Source: Lachnospiraceae bacterium
Lineage (GTDB): Bacteria; Bacillota; Clostridia; Lachnospirales; Lachnospiraceae
Assembly (NCBI GenBank): GCA_017940415.1
Contig: JAGAYR010000016.1
Coordinates: 155,316-219,315, forward strand
DNA length: 64,000 nt
Direction of reading: 5' to 3'
Part shown: positions 54,306 through 64,000 of the stretch, in pieces
Numbering within the stretch: the first letter of the stretch is position 1
Layout of the letters: each line of letters starts with the position of its first letter
Made by a program: the position numbers and the translations under genes
The notes under the pieces: model-generated
Seen by the model: only the letters and a program-made list of their open reading frames with translations
Database searches by the model: none
Told to the model about the DNA's origin: nothing

Positions 54306-54325
54306 CAACAATTAATTGATTGTTG
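54306..54325. promoter_or_regulatory. Inverted repeat in the XRE divergent region
   Basis: CAACAAT-TAATTG-ATTGTTG is a perfect 7-bp inverted repeat, itself containing CAATTAATTG. It lies just upstream of a plus-strand promoter (TTGATT-17-TATAAC, 54323-54351) and is a good candidate operator for the XRE regulator. Confidence 0.6.
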
Positions 54326-54390
54326 ATTTGATACTTTTCTTTCGATATAACTATATCACACCGGTGAGTTCACACAAAGGAGAGAAATAT

Positions 54391-55407
54391 ATGCAGGTAT
54401 CAATCGGAATCAAAATAAGAGAACTCAGAAAACGTGACGGAAGGAAGCAGGAAGATGTTGCCACCGCTCTGGGTATTACCAATCAGGCAATCTCTCGCTG
54501 GGAAGCAGGCAAAGGATACCCCGACATGGAAATGATCCCTGCGATTGCCAACTATTTCCATGTATCTATTGATGAACTATTCGGATATAACAACGACCGC
54601 GAAAACAGACTTTCCGGTTATATCGAAAAAGCTTACGAAATGGCAAAGCCTGAGTTTATGCTTAACAGAAAGAATCTGAAAAAACACGAACAGTTCCTGA
54701 GAGAGGCTCTGTCCGAATTTCCCAATGAATGGAGATTACAGGAAAGGCTGGCTGTTGTATTACAGGTAAAAGCCGGTTCATCATCTTCCGGCAAAATCGA
54801 TAAATGCATTCTTCGTGAAGCCGCAGAGTTATTAGAGCTTTCCGGAAAAGAATGTGATGACGAGCATAGAAAAGAAACAATGACCGATGCTCTGATCTCG
54901 ATATACACACAGATTGGTGACTACAAAAAGATTGAGGAAATGGCCGCCTGTGCATCCACTATTCACTGCAGCCGTGAGATCATCAAAACAACAATTCCGA
55001 ATGCAGGGGATAAAGACCACCATTTAGATGATGCATTCCTTTCACTTATCCACGAGCTTTCCGTTCTCCTGTGGAAAAATCAAGATAAGTTAAAAAGTGC
55101 TTCCTTTTATCTGTCGATAACCGATATTTATAAAAATCTCTTTGAAGAGGATTTCGGTTTATTCAATAGTGATTTGTGTCTCCTTTTTCTTCAAATCTCT
55201 CGCATATACGCATGTGAAGGAGAAGAAAAACGCGCTCTCGCATATTTTGGAAAAGCCCGCAAGCACTGTATTTTATTTGAGGAAGCATTCAATAAGAACA
55301 GGAACGCGCAGGTTCACCCATGGAGCTTTATCTACGTAAGTGAAAATACATTAAAGGAATTCACATCCGTTTTTCCTAAAGAGATAATCAGCAAATTACA
55401 CAGATAA
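54391..55407 (+). CDS. XRE-family transcriptional regulator with helical repeat domain
   Basis: The protein has about 338 residues. An HTH_3 domain lies at the N-terminus (IRELRKRDGRKQEDVATALGITNQAISRWEAGKGYPD), then a long alpha-helical region resembling TPR repeats. The start at 54391 follows AAGGAG; the upstream ATG lacks one. C-terminal helical repeats in such regulators often bind small peptides or effectors; no ligand can be read. It is divergent from the membrane protein/methyltransferase pair. Confidence 0.88.
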   Translation: MQVSIGIKIRELRKRDGRKQEDVATALGITNQAISRWEAGKGYPDMEMIPAIANYFHVSIDELFGYNNDRENRLSGYIEKAYEMAKPEFMLNRKNLKKHEQFLREALSEFPNEWRLQERLAVVLQVKAGSSSSGKIDKCILREAAELLELSGKECDDEHRKETMTDALISIYTQIGDYKKIEEMAACASTIHCSREIIKTTIPNAGDKDHHLDDAFLSLIHELSVLLWKNQDKLKSASFYLSITDIYKNLFEEDFGLFNSDLCLLFLQISRIYACEGEEKRALAYFGKARKHCILFEEAFNKNRNAQVHPWSFIYVSENTLKEFTSVFPKEIISKLHR

Positions 55408-55712: not shown

Positions 55713-57095
55713 TCATTGCAGATCTATCTGCTCTGAAGTCAGGTTGCCGTTCCATTCATTTCCGTCGCAGCGATGATATTCGGTAAATGTTTTTCCGTCT
55801 GTCATTGTATATACTACCTTGAATACCTGTCCGGCTTCAATACTCATCGGATAATTATAATAGGGAAGAACATTACCGGTGGTAGGTACATCTTTAAAAT
55901 CATCGTATGCATCTTCAATCCTCCATACCTCACGGGATTTGTATCCCGGAAGCGAATATGTCAGATCCATGCTTCCGAAATATGATGCCGTATATTCCTT
56001 GCCGTTTATGGTTAAGGTTTCCACAGAGACTGCTTCCGTATTATTCAAATACACCGTCTCATATAAGTTCTCACTGCTTACTTTATCTCCATAGAGTTCT
56101 CTCAAGGCATTTCCAAGACAGGGAACCGTCCATGTACCGTAATTCATTGCATCAAGATCTGTATGAGCAGAGCCAAAAATTCCCATTACTGCACTTCCGC
56201 CCAGACGTTCATATTCCCGGATAAAATTATTTACCATCTGTGTTTCACGGTATTCGTAGTCCTCATCCTTATAAAACCTCTTTCCCTGCTCGATATTTTC
56301 ACTTGCAAGAATATATTCTTCTGAGGTTTCGGTATACCCGTTATTAAGAAGGTATTTCAGATATCTCTCTCCGGTAGTAGCATACTGATGTCCTACGTCA
56401 ATTCCGTGAAAGACAGTTTCGGGGCATTCGCTTTTCAGTTGAAAAAAGAAATCACGAACCACGGGTGAATATCCTTGTGATCCTTCCCAATCACAGAAAA
56501 CATCATAAAAAATGATATCGTCATCTGCCTGCATCCATAAGTTCAAAAACTGAGCAGTATAATAGGGATCTTCAACGAACAGATCTCTCATTCCCAGATC
56601 ATAGTATTCTTTCCAGATTTCCAATTCTTTATCAAGAATTTTCTCATCGGCATGAGCTTCACCGTATAAATATATATTTCCTGTAGTATCAGTCAGTTCC
56701 ACTTTGGAAGTGACATTATAACTTCCGGTGAAACTATCAGCTTTTACACTGACTATCGCACGTCCCGATACAGCTATCAGAAATGTACCGCTTCCGATAT
56801 CTGTCTTTTCATAAACAACATCTTTTCCGCTTTTAACGGTAACGGAAAGAGTTCCGCTTTCTGCTTGAGATGTAAACTGCAGATATCCGATTTCCGGAAA
56901 GACGGGCTTTACAAATGTACCGCTGAAATGCGTGAGTGAAACATCCCACTCATGCATGCGTGCCCTGTCGGAATATCCGCCTATCGCGCCTAACCTTGTG
57001 CTTACAAAGCCGAAATATTTTAAAGTTCCAAAAAGCCCGATAAATATGAGGGCAAAAATCACAGATACAATTGTCTTCTTTGCTTTCTTACTCAT
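55713..57095 (-). CDS. Membrane-anchored TraB/ChaN/Tiki-like protein
   Basis: The 460-residue protein has one N-terminal membrane helix (about 7-28), a beta-rich region, and a domain with YLYGEAHADEKILDKEL, MRDLFVEDPYY, FHGIDVGHQY and VMGIFGSAHTDLD. The paired GE-x-H and GSAH motifs resemble the EreA/ChaN/Tiki fold, which includes metalloproteases and esterases. It is probably extracellular. Activity is not established. It lies 2 nt after the DUF2812 gene in the PadR operon. Confidence 0.65.
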   Translation of the reverse strand: MSKKAKKTIVSVIFALIFIGLFGTLKYFGFVSTRLGAIGGYSDRARMHEWDVSLTHFSGTFVKPVFPEIGYLQFTSQAESGTLSVTVKSGKDVVYEKTDIGSGTFLIAVSGRAIVSVKADSFTGSYNVTSKVELTDTTGNIYLYGEAHADEKILDKELEIWKEYYDLGMRDLFVEDPYYTAQFLNLWMQADDDIIFYDVFCDWEGSQGYSPVVRDFFFQLKSECPETVFHGIDVGHQYATTGERYLKYLLNNGYTETSEEYILASENIEQGKRFYKDEDYEYRETQMVNNFIREYERLGGSAVMGIFGSAHTDLDAMNYGTWTVPCLGNALRELYGDKVSSENLYETVYLNNTEAVSVETLTINGKEYTASYFGSMDLTYSLPGYKSREVWRIEDAYDDFKDVPTTGNVLPYYNYPMSIEAGQVFKVVYTMTDGKTFTEYHRCDGNEWNGNLTSEQIDLQ

Positions 57096-57097
57096 AG

Positions 57098-57700
57098 CTA
57101 TTCCTCGATCCCGGATCTTCTCTTGTCCCTAAAGTACCTGATGAGATAAACAAAAAATCCGGTCAAAAAAACAAGTGCCACAGCATACCACATCAGCATA
57201 AGACTTGTATCCGCGAAGGATATTGTTCCTATTACGGTAAACAGTAAAAACAGCATGAAATACGGTATCAGAAACTTTGCGTAGTAATTTGCTTTGTCCG
57301 TATTGGTGGTGTGGAGTTCAAAAGGAGTTCCGTCGTTTTTCTTTTCAACGATAAGGAGTGCTCTTTCCATCACGGTCTGATAGTCCGCAAACTTGCTTCC
57401 TTTATCGGCAAGCTTTCTCCAATAGATATTTCCTATATCGAAATCCAGATTTACGTTCTTGAAGAAAACCGTATAACCCATATCTTCCAGAAACGCCGCA
57501 TAGTCCTTACCCTCGGTTTTGGATTTATCTCCGATGTATTCGATCTGATATACATACTCATCAGGTTCACAGGTTTCGAATTCGTAGAACAATCTTCCGC
57601 ACTTTACAAGCCTGTATCCCTTAGATGCCATCTTATTGAGCCAGTTTCTCTGGGCATCAATGAATCCAGCATAGTATCTAGCCTTTTTAATGGTACTCAT
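57098..57700 (-). CDS. DUF2812 membrane protein
   Basis: The protein has about 200 residues. The cytoplasmic N-terminal part begins KKARYYAGFIDAQRNWLNKMASKGYRL, characteristic of DUF2812, followed by two membrane helices (about 130-155 and 160-185) and a basic tail. The start at 57700 has GGAGG 6 nt upstream. DUF2812 genes are usually encoded with PadR regulators, as here; their function is unknown. Confidence 0.85.
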   Translation of the reverse strand: MSTIKKARYYAGFIDAQRNWLNKMASKGYRLVKCGRLFYEFETCEPDEYVYQIEYIGDKSKTEGKDYAAFLEDMGYTVFFKNVNLDFDIGNIYWRKLADKGSKFADYQTVMERALLIVEKKNDGTPFELHTTNTDKANYYAKFLIPYFMLFLLFTVIGTISFADTSLMLMWYAVALVFLTGFFVYLIRYFRDKRRSGIEE

Positions 57701-57702
57701 GA

Positions 57703-58020
57703 TCAACCTCCAATAATTCCGGATGCAATCTCGGTTAAGTCCTTCAGTCTCTTAAGCTCCGCTTCTGCTACTACCTTTCCCTTGGAAGTAATGACGTACT
57801 CTTTTTTACGACCGTCAGCATCTCCGTGAGGTTCGATCCATTCCTTTTCAAGAAGGGAATTGATGGCCCCGTACAAAGTTCCCGCTCCAAGGCTGAGTCT
57901 TCCGCCCGTGGAATCCGAGATGAACTGCATGATGGCGTATCCGTGCTTCGGTGTGTACAAAGAAAGCAAAATAAAGAATGTAACCTCCGTAAGTGCTCCG
58001 CCTTTAACGTTGTCTCTCAT
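57703..58020 (-). CDS. PadR-family transcriptional regulator
   Basis: The 105-residue winged-helix protein has LTEVTFFILLSLYTPKHGYAIMQFI and GTLYGAINSLLEKEWIEP, the PadR signature, followed by YVITSKGK. It should repress its own operon; a TTATTAC-N7-GTAATAA dyad overlaps the promoter. The stop overlaps the beginning of the DUF2812 frame. Ligand unknown. Confidence 0.92.
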   Translation of the reverse strand: MRDNVKGGALTEVTFFILLSLYTPKHGYAIMQFISDSTGGRLSLGAGTLYGAINSLLEKEWIEPHGDADGRKKEYVITSKGKVVAEAELKRLKDLTEIASGIIGG

Positions 58021-58181: not shown

Positions 58182-59978
58182 CTAATTCCCGATAACTTTT
58201 TCTAATAAATATCTAATTATCGTTTTCCTTTCCGTTACTATTCTGGCAGTAACTTTCATACCTATTCCTATCTCACCTTCATTACCGTCACGATCATATA
58301 AGATCTCATCCGGAATGCTTCCTTCAATAAGATAATAACCAGAATATTCTCCGTTTTGCATTATTGTGTCTCCGGAAACTCTGAGCACCATTCCCTCAAC
58401 GATGCCGTATTGTCCTCGTGGAAGAGCCGCTATATCATATCTTATCTCATCACCAGGTTTGATACCCACTATATCAGAATTTCCTACATACATCTGAACT
58501 CTATAACCACTTTCATTTGCAGGAATAATGGTTGCAATGGGAGAGCCCGCACTTATCACATCACCCACGACTGGTGACACAGCCATATTTATGAAACCGG
58601 ATTTTGCGGCAACAATACTTCCTTGATTAATCTGATTTATTGCTCTATCCATTTCAGATCTCACCGCCATAAGATTATTTTCGCAAGTATTTAGTTTATT
58701 TATAATAGAAATAGCATGCTCTGCAGAATATAAAGAAATCTCCTCGAAATCCCCCGAATCAGTTACCGAGCAATCAAACCTTTCTTCCGTAAGATCATAA
58801 AGTGAGACACTTGTCTCTATACTACTCTTCTCCGATTCAAGGGAGGTGATTTCTGCATCTGTTTGGCTTATCGCTTTAAGAAAGATAAGAGACGTTTCCG
58901 AATTGAACGAATCATCCAGCTCCTGAAGCCTTTGATCAGTTTCTTTGATTGAATTGAGTTGAATCTGTAGATTATTAGATTTCGATATCAGTTCATCACG
59001 AGCAGCTATATAACTGCTAAGCATTTTATTTTTATATGCCTGGACTGCATCTTCGAGCCCTTCAGGATCATCTGCAAACTTCTTTTCATAAGCCGCTATT
59101 TCATCCAGATAGCTCATATACATCATTCTATACGATGAATTATCCCCTGAAGGAAAGCAGTCGCTTCCATTGGTAATAGAGTTTATTAGTCTGTTGTATC
59201 CGGTAATCTGGGTATCATAATAATCTATATTAGCTCTACCAGCAGATAACGTCGTATCCATCTGTATATCCGTTCTACCTGAGAGATATTCATTAGTAAG
59301 CGATGTCAGATTTGCTTCATATTGACGATACAAAATATCATACTTAGGATATTCTACACACAGATTCTGTCCAGTGAGAATGCTGTTTTTATACGAATAA
59401 AGCCCCATAAGTTCATAGTTGATCTGGGCTAATCTTTCATTCATATTTTCAAGATTGATTAGGTTTGTAGCTCTTTCATACGAATATTTTCTATTGCCAC
59501 TCTCAACATTAAGAATAAAGTCTTCAAAAGTGACATAATACAAATATTCTGCACCATCCGGTGTAGACTCAAACGGATTTTCACCACTATCAATCGCATC
59601 TAGATATTTTATCAGCATTTCTCTTTCAAATTCATATTCTGATGCGCGATCTTCCAATTCAGACAGAATAATCTCGTGTTCTGAAACATCTATAGTAAAC
59701 AAAATATCTCCCTCATTTACGTACTGTCCATCATAAAAGTATACATCCTTTACTTTTCCTGATATCATAGGCGTTACAGTTGCAACATCATCATTCGGTC
59801 TTATTACTCCGAAAGCAGACGAATATATATCTATTTTTCCCACGCATGCGTATATAACAATCACGACAAGCATCGTTATAATCGCATATACAAAACCTGT
59901 GACCCACGAAGACGGCTTGGACATATACACTTCACGGCTATCGGTCATATCTTCCATATTAATGATTATCTTTTTCAT
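58182..59978 (-). CDS. HlyD-like bacteriocin secretion accessory protein
   Basis: The 598-residue protein has one N-terminal membrane helix (about 26-50), a biotinyl-lipoyl-like segment (VKDVYFYDGQYVNEGDILFTI), a long coiled-coil region (about 105-440) and a C-terminal second lipoyl half plus beta-domain. This is the membrane fusion/accessory layout seen with C39-type bacteriocin exporters. It would bridge the exporter across the envelope. It follows the exporter gene by 3 nt and ends the operon. Confidence 0.88.
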   Translation of the reverse strand: MKKIIINMEDMTDSREVYMSKPSSWVTGFVYAIITMLVVIVIYACVGKIDIYSSAFGVIRPNDDVATVTPMISGKVKDVYFYDGQYVNEGDILFTIDVSEHEIILSELEDRASEYEFEREMLIKYLDAIDSGENPFESTPDGAEYLYYVTFEDFILNVESGNRKYSYERATNLINLENMNERLAQINYELMGLYSYKNSILTGQNLCVEYPKYDILYRQYEANLTSLTNEYLSGRTDIQMDTTLSAGRANIDYYDTQITGYNRLINSITNGSDCFPSGDNSSYRMMYMSYLDEIAAYEKKFADDPEGLEDAVQAYKNKMLSSYIAARDELISKSNNLQIQLNSIKETDQRLQELDDSFNSETSLIFLKAISQTDAEITSLESEKSSIETSVSLYDLTEERFDCSVTDSGDFEEISLYSAEHAISIINKLNTCENNLMAVRSEMDRAINQINQGSIVAAKSGFINMAVSPVVGDVISAGSPIATIIPANESGYRVQMYVGNSDIVGIKPGDEIRYDIAALPRGQYGIVEGMVLRVSGDTIMQNGEYSGYYLIEGSIPDEILYDRDGNEGEIGIGMKVTARIVTERKTIIRYLLEKVIGN

Positions 59979-59981
59979 AGT

Positions 59982-62138
59982 TCAATCACCTACCTGTGAA
60001 ATATACAGACTCCTATAATACCCGCCTTCCTTTTCCATCAGTTGCTCATGACTACCACATTCAACGATCATCCCTTTCTCCATCACGAAGATTAAATCGC
60101 ATCTTTTAATTGTACTCAGTCTATGTGCAATGACTATTGTGGTCATATCTTCTCCATAAGAATCCAGTGTCTCCTGTATGGCTCTTTCTGTCACAGCATC
60201 AAGGTTGCTCGTCGCTTCGTCAAGAATCAATATATCCGGTTTCTTAAGCATTGCTCTTGCAATAGCAAGTCTCTGTCTCTGGCCTCCAGATAGATTACTG
60301 CCATTTTCATCAAGATGACTGTCATACCTTAAAGGAAGTTCGTTAATATAATCGTGGATTCGTGCCTGCTTTGCGGCATTAATCACCTCTTCCATATCTG
60401 GGTTTGTCACTCCGAAAGTAAGATTTTCAATTATCGTTCCTGAAAATAGAAAAGTTTCCTGTGGTATATATGCTATTTTTTCACGCAGTATGCTTATATC
60501 AATGTCCGGTATAGCCAGTTCGTTTATGGTAATGCTTCCAGATTCACACTGATAAAAATTCAGTAACAATTTAGCAATGGTACTTTTCCCTGCTCCGCTT
60601 TCCCCAACTATAGCCACCCTCTGTCCTCTTTCTATATGCATCGAGAAATGCTCCAGCACATACCTTCTCGTTCCGTATCTGAACGTAATATCCCTTATAT
60701 CAATATTCCCTTTGAGTGACAATGGCTTCACTTTACCTTCTCCATCAGTTTTATTCTCGATTTCAAGATCTAGTATCTCACCAAGTCTGTCGGATGCAAC
60801 AACAGCGGTTTGAATTGTTGGCTGGAGATTTATAATGTTTTTTACCGGATCTAAGAAATAAACTAAAAGAGCATTAAAAGATACCAGACTTCCTACAGTC
60901 ATTGTCCCATTTAGTACAGAATGTGCGCCTATCCATATAATTGCTATCCCACCAATTGATTCAACAAGCATCTTAAGCCCATCCTGGGTATTTCCTATTA
61001 CAGAAAGCCTGAATATACTTCTTAAAAGTCTTATAAACTTGAATTCTGTTTCAGTCTGCACCGTGCGTTCCCCGTTGAATGCCTTTACAGTCTGGATGCC
61101 ATTGACAGATTCAACAAGATAAGAGGTAAGTTGTGCATTATCTTCCATCTGTTTTTGATTGGCCATTTTATACAATCCGTTAAACGAAAATACAAGAATC
61201 GCGTAAAGAAAAACCATTATAAGTGCTATAAAAAACAACGTAGAATTCTTAGCAAAAAGTATCACGCCTCCAGCAATCATCATCAAAGAATCAATCATAA
61301 CAGTAAGAGCTGCCTTTGATATTGCGCTTCTTATTGAAGAAGCATCCTGAAATCTCGATATAATCTCACCGGTTTTTCTAGTGCTAAAAAAATCCATAGG
61401 AAGTTTCAATACATGCTCATAATATCCAAGCAAGAGTGATATATCTAGTTTCTGTGATAAATACACGAGAAGCTGTGATCTTAAAACTGACAAAATCACA
61501 GAAAAAAACTTAAGCAAAATAATCCCTATCGACAGGACATTCAAAGTCTTAACTATCCCCGCAGGTAAAATGTCGTCTATGATGAGCTGAAAATAAAATG
61601 CCCCCAATATTCCCAACACTGTTATACTCAGAGAAGCAATAAATATATCCAACAGCAATTTCTTCTGAGGTTTTAGTAGGATAAAAAAACGCTCAAAAAT
61701 ATTCTTGGTATCACTTCCCTTTCTGAATTCATTATTCGGAACCATAAAAATCAGAACACCAGTCCAGGTTTTAAAGAATTCGTCAGGGGTTATTTTGATA
61801 ATCCCTTTTGCCGGATCAGCGATTATCACCTGCTTCCTCGTAATCTTATGGATAACAACATAATGAAGCAAAGTTCCATCCACCACTACATGGGCAACGG
61901 CAGGCAATGGAAAATCAGAAAAAAAGGCATCCCGGTTTCCCTTGACGCCTTTTGCTGTAAAGCCCAACTGTTCCGCAGCCTTAATCATTCCATATGCATT
62001 TGTTCCCGCTTTGTCAGTTCCTGCAACCTGCCTAATCTTTGTGATTGAGGTCTTAAACCCAAACTGTTTGCAGATAGTAGCAAGGCAGGCAGCACCACAA
62101 TCAGTAATATCGTGCTGTTTAATACAATAATATTTCAT
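59982..62138 (-). CDS. C39-peptidase ABC exporter (PCAT) for double-glycine peptides
   Basis: The 718-residue protein has an N-terminal C39 cysteine protease domain with Cys14 (DITDCGAAC), His92 (LLHYVVIH) and Asp108 (IADPA), then six membrane helices, then an ABC ATPase with Walker A GESGAGKST, signature NLSGGQRQRL and Walker B ILILDEATSNLD. It cleaves leaders after a Gly-Gly and exports the mature peptide. Two GG-leader peptides are encoded just upstream. The 3-nt spacing to both neighbours indicates one operon. Confidence 0.95.
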   Translation of the reverse strand: MKYYCIKQHDITDCGAACLATICKQFGFKTSITKIRQVAGTDKAGTNAYGMIKAAEQLGFTAKGVKGNRDAFFSDFPLPAVAHVVVDGTLLHYVVIHKITRKQVIIADPAKGIIKITPDEFFKTWTGVLIFMVPNNEFRKGSDTKNIFERFFILLKPQKKLLLDIFIASLSITVLGILGAFYFQLIIDDILPAGIVKTLNVLSIGIILLKFFSVILSVLRSQLLVYLSQKLDISLLLGYYEHVLKLPMDFFSTRKTGEIISRFQDASSIRSAISKAALTVMIDSLMMIAGGVILFAKNSTLFFIALIMVFLYAILVFSFNGLYKMANQKQMEDNAQLTSYLVESVNGIQTVKAFNGERTVQTETEFKFIRLLRSIFRLSVIGNTQDGLKMLVESIGGIAIIWIGAHSVLNGTMTVGSLVSFNALLVYFLDPVKNIINLQPTIQTAVVASDRLGEILDLEIENKTDGEGKVKPLSLKGNIDIRDITFRYGTRRYVLEHFSMHIERGQRVAIVGESGAGKSTIAKLLLNFYQCESGSITINELAIPDIDISILREKIAYIPQETFLFSGTIIENLTFGVTNPDMEEVINAAKQARIHDYINELPLRYDSHLDENGSNLSGGQRQRLAIARAMLKKPDILILDEATSNLDAVTERAIQETLDSYGEDMTTIVIAHRLSTIKRCDLIFVMEKGMIVECGSHEQLMEKEGGYYRSLYISQVGD

Positions 62139-62141
62139 ATA

Positions 62142-62525
62142 TTACTCATTTCCAAAAAGATATTTATGCACGCTATCAAACAATGTATATGATGCAATGG
62201 CTGAAATAGAACTTGCTATACCACGACCATCTAAAACTAATTCTTCATAGAACATAAATATTTCAACAACTGATATAAACACGGCCACAAACAATAAGAA
62301 ATAGGTCCACGATTTCTTTTTGTTCACAAGTTCTCCCGTTTGTTCCGTATTGTGCCAACCACATTTAACTGAAAAAAGCGCAAACAAAAAGCAAATCACC
62401 ATATTAAAAATATAATAAATATCTATGACCGGATGATTAGCAAGACTATAAATTGATAATATTATCAAGCAAATAACCACTACCGTCGAAACGATTTTTC
62501 TCAAATTATTTAGCTTTATACTCAT
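62142..62525 (-). CDS. Small membrane protein, candidate bacteriocin immunity protein
   Basis: The 127-residue protein has three or four hydrophobic helices (about 10-28, 33-52, 72-90, 100-118). It has no recognisable family. It lies between the peptide genes and the exporter, 3 nt from the exporter gene, the usual place for an immunity protein. Immunity is inferred from position, size and topology only. Confidence 0.65.
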   Translation of the reverse strand: MSIKLNNLRKIVSTVVVICLIILSIYSLANHPVIDIYYIFNMVICFLFALFSVKCGWHNTEQTGELVNKKKSWTYFLLFVAVFISVVEIFMFYEELVLDGRGIASSISAIASYTLFDSVHKYLFGNE

Positions 62526-62611
62526 ATATTGCCACCCAAATGATATATTCTTGTATATTCAAATCACGTTTTATCTATGTAAATAGAAGTTTTTTGTTTT
62601 GGTTAAATGAG

Positions 62612-62662
62612 CATCCCTAGCAAGAAGCAGAAAAGAAACCCCACACTTAAATGCTAGGGATG
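62612..62662 (-). terminator. Hairpin after the bacteriocin peptide genes
   Basis: CATCCCTAGCA pairs with TGCTAGGGATG (11 bp) across a 29-nt loop, directly after the second peptide gene. Without a clear T-run it is probably a partial terminator or mRNA stabiliser, keeping peptide mRNA above exporter mRNA. Confidence 0.65.
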
Positions 62663-62670
62663 TCCTCATA

Positions 62671-62862
62671 TCAATCAGCTGTAACGCCAGCAATTATCAT
62701 ACCTGCTCCGCTTATAACCGTTGCTACTCCGCTAGCACTTAATGCTACTGTAGCACATTCTGCTACTCCGCCAACCACAACCAAAACTCCGCCGACAATA
62801 AGCCATCCATTAGCCCCACCATATATATCCTGTAATTCATCGTATGACAACTCTGTATACAT
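62671..62862 (-). CDS. Double-glycine bacteriocin precursor peptide 2
   Basis: The 63-residue peptide has a 16-residue leader, MYTELSYDELQDIYGG, of classic double-glycine type (acidic, with a hydrophobic residue at -4 and -7 and GG at the end). The mature part, about 47 residues, is very rich in Gly, Val and Ala, with one Cys and a C-terminal SGAGMIIAGVTAD. It forms one hydrophobic helix-like stretch. It is encoded 14 nt after a second GG peptide, so a two-peptide (class IIb) bacteriocin is likely. No match to a named bacteriocin came to mind. Confidence 0.82.
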   Translation of the reverse strand: MYTELSYDELQDIYGGANGWLIVGGVLVVVGGVAECATVALSASGVATVISGAGMIIAGVTAD

Positions 62863-62876
62863 TTTTCATCCCTCCA

Positions 62877-63083
62877 TCAAGCTATAGAGCCAATCAAACC
62901 ACATCCCGTTCCCGCAAGAATCAATGCTCCAGGAATATTACCTGTTGCAGCCACAATAGGGCTAGCAGCTATGCAAAGGACTCCGCCAGTAGCAAGCGCA
63001 AATTCTCCCCATCCGCCGGCAGTAATATCAAACAATTCTCCATCAAGTAGTTCACAAAAACCGTTCTGTAATGCAATTTCCAT
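62877..63083 (-). CDS. Double-glycine bacteriocin precursor peptide 1
   Basis: The 68-residue peptide has a 24-residue leader ending ELLDGELFDITAGG. The mature part of about 44 residues starts WGEFALATGG and contains GxxxG motifs (GNIPG, GTGCG) typical of helix-helix packing in two-peptide bacteriocins, and two Cys that could form a disulfide. A strong AAGGAG ribosome site precedes it. It is the first of the peptide pair. Confidence 0.82.
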   Translation of the reverse strand: MEIALQNGFCELLDGELFDITAGGWGEFALATGGVLCIAASPIVAATGNIPGALILAGTGCGLIGSIA

Positions 63084-63255: not shown

Positions 63256-63714
63256 CTACACTATATTAGGATTGATTCCTACATAAATATCTATTTCTAC
63301 ACTTTCGGAAGATGCCTTATCCGTACTTTTTGAAACAACATATCCCGTCGTTATTGGCTTTAATTCATGCTCTGCTATATATTTGTTTAATTGATTGTAC
63401 ACCTCCTGAAATCCTGCCGGATATCCTTTAAATGAAGCAACCACAGCATTAACTATTAATATCTGTCTCTTATAAGCAAACGTATCTGATGAATCAACTC
63501 TTCTATCTATAGGCATAAACACCTCAAAATCAACTCCATTGCCTTCTATAGAATGTGTAGCAGTTATCAGATCACCAATCCGCCTTGCACCAACTTCCCG
63601 AATATACGTTTCCATTTCCTGTACGACTAAACCGATTTCATCCTGTCTTTTTATTCCTCTATAACAAATTAAGTTATCTATATGTAGCTCTTGCTTTTCT
63701 TTTATTCCTATCAT
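63256..63714 (-). CDS. GyrI-like/effector-binding-type protein (DUF5085-like)
   Basis: The 152-residue protein has no membrane helix and two related alpha/beta halves (RIGDLITATHSIEGNGVDFEVFMPID and KPITTGYVVSKSTDKASSESVEIDIYVGI), a layout resembling GyrI-like small-molecule-binding proteins and DUF5085. It lies upstream of the bacteriocin peptides on the same strand. It could be a regulator, chaperone or immunity factor; the sequence does not decide. An IS begins about 95 nt upstream. Confidence 0.65.
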   Translation of the reverse strand: MIGIKEKQELHIDNLICYRGIKRQDEIGLVVQEMETYIREVGARRIGDLITATHSIEGNGVDFEVFMPIDRRVDSSDTFAYKRQILIVNAVVASFKGYPAGFQEVYNQLNKYIAEHELKPITTGYVVSKSTDKASSESVEIDIYVGINPNIV

Positions 63715-63920: not shown

Positions 63921-64000
63921 ATGGGGCGAAAGACTAAATGTACAGTAGAGGAAAAGATTTCTGCTGTTGAGGATTATTTGAATGGAACACGTTCTATCTC
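63921..64000 (+). CDS. IS3-family transposase OrfA-like HTH protein (partial)
   Basis: Only the first 26 codons are in the window: MGRKTKCTVEEKISAVEDYL, then NGTRSI. This is the start of the HTH domain common to IS3/IS150-type OrfA proteins. AGGAGG lies 7 nt upstream. The rest of orfA and any orfB are beyond the window edge, so intactness is unknown. Confidence 0.7.
   Translation, partial: MGRKTKCTVEEKISAVEDYLNGTRSI

What the first reader, a model, noticed from the sequence alone, without database searches (positions are those of the whole stretch)
62671..63083. Adjacent double-glycine peptides: a possible undescribed two-peptide bacteriocin
Two short genes 14 nt apart encode peptides with clear GG-type leaders (ends ELQDIYGG and LFDITAGG) and hydrophobic Gly/Ala-rich mature parts of 47 and 44 residues with GxxxG-like motifs. 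They are followed by a small membrane protein, a C39-peptidase exporter and an HlyD-like protein. Pairing and order match class IIb bacteriocins, but the mature sequences match none that I recognise. Peptide 1 has two Cys, peptide 2 has one.
Basis: partly seen in the sequence, partly recalled or inferred. Interest (0 to 1): 0.75.

Follow-up and report, generated by a model that had tools for sequence, protein, structure and literature searches.

The report
Two-peptide bacteriocin operon with guard-like gene
A bacterium carries two neighbouring genes for small secreted peptides, probably a paired antibacterial weapon with its own exporter, and just before them sits a gene resembling proteins that shield other bacteria from their own membrane toxins before export.

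Summary
The two double-glycine peptide genes are real (minus strand, 62877-63083 then 62671-62862, 14 nt apart). A 3-TM protein, the only C39-peptidase exporter found in the assembly, and an HlyD-like adaptor follow.

No family model matches either peptide above its cut-off. A similarly arranged pair with the exporter occurs in two other genera (G197, G139); those pairs are homologous to each other, but the window's mature sequences are not significantly similar to them.

DUF5085 proteins TipE and ExiB neutralise glycine-zipper type VII toxins made in the same cell. Such genes recur beside GG peptides or C39 exporters: 10 of 14 places in one search (3 were seeds), 4 of 8 in a Pfam-seeded one.

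Best explanation: an unmodified two-peptide bacteriocin with two immunity layers, a membrane protein and a cytosolic DUF5085-like sequestering protein. The bacteriocin part is likely. The guard role is inferred, and counter-examples exist. New variant of a known kind.

The parts
63256..63714 (-). DUF5085-like / GyrI-fold soluble 152-aa protein, first gene of the set; proposed cytosolic guard (immunity or chaperone) for the peptides
62877..63083 (-). Peptide A precursor, 68 aa: 24-aa double-glycine leader, 44-aa hydrophobic mature part (net -1, 2 Cys, 2 GxxxG)
   Evidence: match to G197 peptide A, E 5.3e-6, carried mainly by the leader since the mature parts alone are not significant
62671..62862 (-). 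Peptide B precursor, 63 aa: 16-aa double-glycine leader, 47-aa hydrophobic mature part (net -2, 1 Cys, no GxxxG)
   Evidence: no family above cut-off
62612..62662 (-). Inverted repeat (11-nt arms 62612-62622 and 62652-62662) between peptide B and the membrane-protein gene; possible RNA stem separating or tuning expression
   Evidence: RNA fold of 62590-62675 -26.5 kcal/mol, z -3.2; no terminator-like site found by the consensus scan
62142..62525 (-). 127-aa protein with three predicted TM segments; candidate membrane immunity protein
   Evidence: hydropathy; no family above cut-off; ends three nt before the exporter gene
59982..62138 (-). Peptidase-C39 ABC exporter, 718 aa
   Evidence: TIGR01193 695.5 bits, PF03412 139 bits; only match of the C39 model in the assembly
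58182..59978 (-). HlyD-like exporter accessory protein, 598 aa
   Evidence: PF13437 40.6 bits; best NCBIfam TIGR01843 and TIGR01000, both below cut-off

Best explanation
The locus encodes an unmodified two-peptide, class IIb-like bacteriocin. Peptides A and B are made as leader-bearing precursors, cut after Gly-Gly and exported by the C39 ABC exporter with its HlyD-like partner, and act together on the membrane of competing bacteria (inferred). The producer protects itself at two places: the 3-TM protein at the membrane, and the DUF5085-like GyrI-fold protein in the cytosol, which holds the hydrophobic peptide in its groove until the exporter takes it, as ExiB and TipE do for glycine-zipper type VII toxins. 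Shown here: gene content, order, leaders, exporter, predicted fold, and recurrence of the DUF5085-like gene beside GG-peptide/C39 genes. Inferred: antibacterial activity, need for both peptides, role of each immunity candidate.
For: Pairing, leaders and exporter. Similarly arranged pair plus exporter in G197 (pair, 107-aa membrane protein, exporter, HlyD) and pair beside exporter and HlyD in G139; G197 and G139 peptides A (z 8.9) and B (z 11.4) are homologous. DUF5085-like gene: 14 places in 12 of 397 family genomes with a 3-row profile; 10 of 14 beside GG peptides and/or a C39 exporter, and 7 of the 11 places that were not profile seeds, of which two are broken fragments and one truncated. 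Search seeded by the Pfam model itself: 8 places in 196 order genomes, 4 in such clusters; of the 3 places over the Pfam cut-off one is in a C39 cluster (G480, 30.1 bits), one in an LXG cluster (G153), one in neither (G458). A peptide-seeded search, blind to this gene, hit 13 other genomes; in four of them (G421, G467, G527, G556; three families) a DUF5085-like gene lies in the same GG/C39 cluster, two of these (G527, G556) also found. The gene sits 82-186 nt upstream of a same-strand GG gene in window, G131, G054, G421 and G556. Fold: GyrI-like, with CtaZ (closthioamide-bound) and the albicidin resistance protein STM3175 among the top matches. In print: TipE and ExiAB are DUF5085 proteins that neutralise glycine-zipper toxins co-produced in the same cell; ExiB binds the zipper in a hydrophobic groove (PMC10434224, PMC12744356; passages read).
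Against: The window protein is below the DUF5085 cut-off (26.3 against 30 bits). 15 of 18 related exporters have no DUF5085-like gene in the stretch fetched, though three of those loci end at a contig edge just upstream (L014, L045, L056); the G139 pair itself has none beside it. The three GG-leader ORFs seen beside the G480 gene are not Gly-rich, and the LXG toxin beside the G153 gene carries a GHH nuclease domain, so zipper binding is not a general rule. Strict GxxxG is absent from peptide B. 4 of 14 places and 4 of 8 are not in bacteriocin clusters. The profile was built only from bacteriocin-linked proteins, which biases it. Several relatives match Pfam weakly or not at all (L046, L048, L077, L079 no DUF5085 hit), and one (L088) matches GyrI-like better. 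Mature-sequence homology to the G197 and G139 pairs is not significant.
Confidence: 0.5

Rival explanations
1. Two-peptide bacteriocin as above, but the DUF5085-like protein is a ligand sensor or regulator: a stand-alone GyrI-type effector-binding domain that senses peptide or a small molecule and controls the operon.
For: The best fold matches include effector domains of transcription factors (EcmrR, BmrR, Rob); it is the first gene, 172 nt from peptide A.
Against: No DNA-binding domain found in its 152 aa; the closest curated family is DUF5085, of which at least TipE and ExiAB were shown to be immunity proteins.
Confidence: 0.2
2. Two independently acting single-peptide bacteriocins exported by one transporter, not a functional pair.
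For: Related exporters also carry single GG genes or runs of three; five DUF5085-linked clusters show one longer GG peptide (L078, L079, L080, L081, L083).
Against: A pair in the same order, 11-14 nt apart, recurs in G197 and G139.
Confidence: 0.25
3. The peptides are signals (pheromones) or have another secreted role rather than killing.
For: GG peptides exported by such transporters also serve cell-to-cell communication (PMC7018657, abstract start). An HTH_3 regulator with a weak TPR match lies at 54316-55407 on the other strand and a PadR regulator at 57703-58020; their targets are unknown.
Against: Mature parts of 44 and 47 residues are long and very hydrophobic (GRAVY 1.36 and 1.54); no receptor or sensor gene was recognised among the nine ORFs scanned, but sequence upstream is missing.
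Confidence: 0.12
4. The DUF5085-like gene is an unrelated neighbour, and the locus is an ordinary two-peptide bacteriocin cluster.
For: 15 of 18 related exporter loci show no such gene; its Pfam score is below cut-off.
Against: Repeated adjacency in many genera, from searches seeded three different ways.
Confidence: 0.15

Closest known systems
Class IIb two-peptide bacteriocins (lactococcin G, plantaricin EF/JK and the like)
   Same: Two adjacent genes with GG leaders, C39 exporter plus accessory protein, small multi-TM candidate immunity protein (class features recalled)
   Different: No sequence match above cut-off (NF038034 14.6 against 37 bits); slightly acidic, where class IIb peptides are usually cationic (recalled); GxxxG in one peptide only; DUF5085-like gene
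Gallocin A (PMC10100652, search listing only)
   Same: Two-peptide bacteriocin; Cys residues in the mature peptides
   Different: Title reports intramolecular disulfides required for activity; here only peptide A has two Cys, and the Cys numbers differ in the G197 and G139 pairs
TelE/TipE and EsxX/ExiAB (T7SS LXG glycine-zipper toxins with DUF5085 immunity proteins; PMC10434224, PMC12744356, passages)
   Same: DUF5085-related soluble protein beside a hydrophobic, Gly-rich product; EsxX also has separate membrane immunity proteins
   Different: Large LXG toxins exported by type VII secretion; here short GG peptides exported by a C39 ABC system
Cdz system of Caulobacter (PMC5380434, search listing and abstract start only)
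   Same: Two-protein bacteriocin with glycine zippers
   Different: Alphaproteobacterial and cell-surface associated; membrane immunity protein, as stated in PMC10434224
Pneumococcal rtg locus (PMC7018657, passages)
   Same: C39 exporter, several GG peptides, and a gene (rtgX) listed as GyrI-like hypothetical protein
   Different: Function of the peptides not determined and none given for rtgX in the passages seen; Rgg-regulated; relation of rtgX to DUF5085 not tested here
Enterocin DD14 / DdD (PMC13262744, abstract and outline read)
   Same: Two-peptide bacteriocin with a protein needed for immunity against peptide made inside the cell
   Different: Leaderless peptides; DdD is a multi-TM membrane protein, not a soluble GyrI-fold protein

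Membership tests
Class IIb two-peptide bacteriocin | Two adjacent structural genes | tested here: met
   14 nt apart, same strand
Class IIb two-peptide bacteriocin | Double-glycine leaders and dedicated C39 exporter with accessory protein | tested here: met
Class IIb two-peptide bacteriocin | GxxxG or GxxxG-like motif in both peptides | tested here: inconclusive
   Peptide A two GxxxG; peptide B none strict, AxxxA present; small-residue spacings not above shuffles
Class IIb two-peptide bacteriocin | One cognate multi-TM immunity protein | tested here: inconclusive
   127-aa protein with three TM segments, no family above cut-off
Class IIb two-peptide bacteriocin | Both peptides needed for full antibacterial activity | not testable with these tools
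   needs synthesis and assay
Curated bacteriocin sequence families (lactococcin G beta NF038034, Bacteriocin_IIc PF10439) | Score over the curated cut-off | tested here: not met
   Peptide B: NF038034 14.6 against 37 bits, PF10439 11.1 against 27.1 bits; peptide A no hit
DUF5085 (PF16895) | Score over the Pfam gathering cut-off | tested here: not met
   26.3 against 30 bits for the window protein; the G480 relative in a C39 cluster reaches 30.1. Hence called DUF5085-like throughout
DUF5085 (PF16895) | GyrI-like duplicated SHS2 fold | tested here: met
DUF5085 (PF16895) | Binds and neutralises a membrane-active toxin in the cytosol (TipE, ExiB) | not testable with these tools
   needs co-expression and binding assay
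T7SS LXG effector cluster | LXG toxin gene beside the DUF5085-like gene | tested here: inconclusive
   No LXG domain in the nine ORFs scanned on the downstream side; the contig ends 286 nt upstream of the gene, so the upstream side is unknown

The most novel reading that the evidence does not exclude
DUF5085-like GyrI-fold proteins are a previously unrecognised cytosolic immunity/chaperone layer of C39-exported unmodified bacteriocins across this bacterial order: they hold hydrophobic GG peptides in a groove before export, so the same fold guards producers of both type VII membrane toxins and small bacteriocins.
Probability: 0.35. Interest if true: 0.75.

Novelty: new variant of a known kind. 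Interest (0 to 1): 0.52.

Why it matters
Producers of leader-bearing class II bacteriocins are thought to rely on the leader and on membrane immunity proteins (recalled). Intracellular protection is an open question even for leaderless ones, where the membrane protein DdD was recently reported to give it (PMC13262744, abstract). A soluble groove protein that guards hydrophobic peptides inside the cell would add a different kind of layer, give a genomic marker for finding unmodified bacteriocins that sequence models miss, and link two weapon systems (T7SS toxins and ABC-exported peptides) through one immunity fold. It can be tested with small proteins in laboratory strains.

Tried and rejected
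Sequence relatives of the peptides: none in viral contigs (peptide B alone; the 3-row peptide A alignment); none in plasmids for peptide B and four weak matches for peptide A, best E 0.3, under unrelated features. Genome contigs with the 2-row peptide A alignment: one locus, L061, letter for letter the G197 contig, titled a Clostridiales MAG. Solved structures: peptide A best match a designed 'Cake4' protein at E 0.0022, peptide B best E 0.92; both judged not informative. Peptide B in 397 family genomes: none of the 6 non-self rows was kept (four lie in open frames over 200 aa; the G062 and G112 neighbourhoods, fetched, showed no GG-peptide/exporter cluster by the scan). Peptide A there: 2 non-self rows, G197 kept as a relative, G182 kept only as a GG-leader peptide.

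Peptide-profile search in 196 order genomes: 14 genomes including the window's, 19 non-self rows. Some are clearly not bacteriocins (L089 lies inside a 2622-aa frame; L090 and L098 lie opposite a long gene). Used to look at neighbourhoods, not as homologues.

Glycine-zipper enrichment: tested by shuffles and not found in the window peptides. Tree of 16 DUF5085-like proteins: too divergent to say whether the bacteriocin-linked ones have one origin. The exporter survey scored at most two candidates per genome at E 1e-230 or better, so more distant C39 exporters were not surveyed. The Pfam census did not list G421 or G467, whose proteins match PF16895 at E 3e-4 and 9e-5, so it misses cases. The G325 fragment was not picked up by the HMM; its neighbours were read. 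In one search the regular expression missed one of three GG genes of L046 seen by eye. No ExiA or ExiB structure appears among the rows shown in the PDB fold searches; that says nothing about relatedness.

Full report
What is there. The window is the end of a 219-kb contig (G000:C7, 2.69-Mb assembly in 48 contigs, completeness 84%). On the minus strand, from the contig end inward, lie a 152-aa gene (63714-63256), peptide A (63083-62877, 68 aa), peptide B (62862-62671, 63 aa), an inverted repeat, a 127-aa membrane protein (62525-62142), a C39 ABC exporter (62138-59982) and an HlyD-like protein (59978-58182). The Pfam C39 model matches one place in the assembly, this exporter. A coding start that looks like a transposase (resemblance recalled, not searched) begins near 63921 on the other strand, and the contig stops at 64000, so anything further upstream is unknown.

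The pairing, the leaders and the exporter context are right. The Cys counts are swapped (peptide A two, peptide B one in the mature part), GxxxG occurs only in peptide A (two), and in neither peptide do small-residue spacings exceed shuffles. Net charges are -1 and -2, unlike the usual cationic class IIb peptides (the latter recalled). No Pfam or NCBIfam model reaches its cut-off; Bacteriocin_IIc gives 11.1 of 27.1 bits and lactococcin G beta 14.6 of 37 bits, both for peptide B. Bacteriocin_IIc does touch relatives below its cut-off: G139 peptide A at E 1.2e-4 and a G131 peptide at E 4.8e-4.

Relatives. Among 397 genomes of the family, the one convincing match to peptide A outside the window is in G197 (E 5.3e-6). 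There a pair 12 nt apart is followed by a 56-aa ORF, a 107-aa membrane protein, a 65%-identical exporter and an HlyD protein. The same contig is public as JAAYNM010000071.1, titled a Clostridiales MAG. In G139 a pair 11 nt apart lies just downstream of HlyD. G197 and G139 peptides A and B are homologous pair by pair (z 8.9 and 11.4), whereas the window's mature peptides give z values of 2.5 or less against the four. So the arrangement is conserved; the window's active parts have no sequence relative in what was searched. Around the 18 exporters found at E 1e-230 or better (52% identity or more, 17 of 397 genomes), 8 of 18 loci hold a run of two or more GG genes no more than 150 nt apart, window included (regular-expression scan, loci cut by contig ends included).

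Recurrence. A profile of these three proteins (A3) matched 14 places in 12 of 397 family genomes. Ten of the 14 lie beside GG-leader peptides and/or a C39 exporter: the window, G131, G054, G139:C14, G007:C15 (truncated), G092, G082:C50, G301, and broken fragments in G182 and G325. Four do not: G115, G007:C33, and two generic GyrI-like or MerR proteins in G082:C12 and G097. Leaving out the three seeds, 7 of 11. The Pfam model alone matched 8 places in 196 order genomes: four in such clusters (window, G480, G556, G527), one in a type VII cluster with YwqH-like and LXG genes (G153), and three elsewhere (G458, and the weak G511 and G525). Of the three over the cut-off, one is in each context: C39 cluster (G480), LXG (G153), neither (G458). 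A search by peptide profile, blind to this gene, hit 13 other genomes of 196; in G421, G467, G527 and G556, from three further families, a DUF5085-like gene lies in the same GG/C39 cluster. Distances to a same-strand GG gene are 82-186 nt in window, G131, G054, G421 and G556. The reverse view is weaker: of the 18 exporters closest to the window's, 3 have the gene.

Literature. DUF5085 appears in 5 papers of the library, of which I opened two, as passages. TipE antagonises the glycine-zipper LXG toxin TelE when both are expressed in E. coli (PMC10434224). ExiAB, a DUF5085 heterodimer, neutralises cytosolic EsxX by holding its glycine zipper in a groove on ExiB, while the membrane proteins ExiCD protect from outside (PMC12744356). 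TelE's C-terminal domain is described as having a stretch weakly homologous to bacteriocin IIc. The pneumococcal rtg locus, a C39 exporter with several GG peptides, has a gene rtgX listed as a GyrI-like hypothetical protein (PMC7018657 passages). Searches for DUF5085 (5 papers), PF16895 (none), GyrI-like with bacteriocin and immunity (2 papers) and glycine zipper with class II bacteriocin, cytoplasmic and immunity (1 paper, not opened) showed me no report of DUF5085 in GG-bacteriocin clusters; three of the five DUF5085 papers were seen only as listing, and papers outside this library may exist. Two recent pieces on class II bacteriocin surveys were seen as passages only (PMC13289728; PMC12648078); those passages do not name DUF5085. 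Intracellular immunity to a bacteriocin is not itself new: DdD is reported for leaderless enterocin DD14 (PMC13262744, abstract).

Interpretation. The simplest model is a two-peptide bacteriocin with membrane immunity (127-aa protein) and a cytosolic guard. Against a strict glycine-zipper role stand the G480 cluster, whose GG-leader ORFs are not Gly-rich, the G153 LXG toxin, which carries a GHH nuclease domain, and the absence of GxxxG from peptide B. The guard might recognise hydrophobic helices more broadly, or leaders, or be a sensor. The inverted repeat between peptide B and the membrane gene (z -3.2) could keep peptide transcripts more abundant than the exporter's (inference).

Verdict. 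On re-checking the calls I corrected several statements (C39 uniqueness now rests; the peptide-seeded cases overlap partly with the Pfam census; regulators near the locus are now told); none required a change of odds.

Noticed in passing
window 62612-62662: 11-nt inverted repeat with a 29-nt loop between peptide B and the membrane-protein gene, no terminator-like T-run found; possible expression-tuning stem.
   Followed up: partly
window 63921-64000: Coding start on the plus strand at the very contig end that looks like a transposase (by eye, not searched); the cluster may be flanked by a mobile element.
   Followed up: no
window 54316-55407: HTH_3 regulator with a weak TPR match, on the opposite strand beyond the HlyD gene; any link to the peptides is unknown.
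   Followed up: partly
window 55713-58020: PadR-like regulator, DUF2812 protein and a 460-aa protein of no clear family follow the HlyD gene.
   Followed up: no
L108 4393-8958 (G153): Type VII LXG cluster with a GHH nuclease toxin and two tandem DUF5085-like genes (only the second is recognised by Pfam), so this family also accompanies a non-zipper LXG toxin.
   Followed up: partly
L015 1739-1915 and L082 1995-2117: Broken remnants of DUF5085-like genes directly upstream of intact GG-peptide genes in G182 and G325.
   Followed up: partly
L014 888-1189: ORFs that look like transposase pieces (by eye) between the peptide pair and the exporter in G197.
   Followed up: no
L049 10639-11155: Three GG genes in a row (G336), two with nearly identical leaders but different mature parts, suggesting duplication and diversification.
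   Followed up: no
L020 / L023 (G000:C30:9553-14068): Two neighbouring ABC exporter genes in the window's genome, one frame with an internal TGA; no C39 match there.
   Followed up: partly
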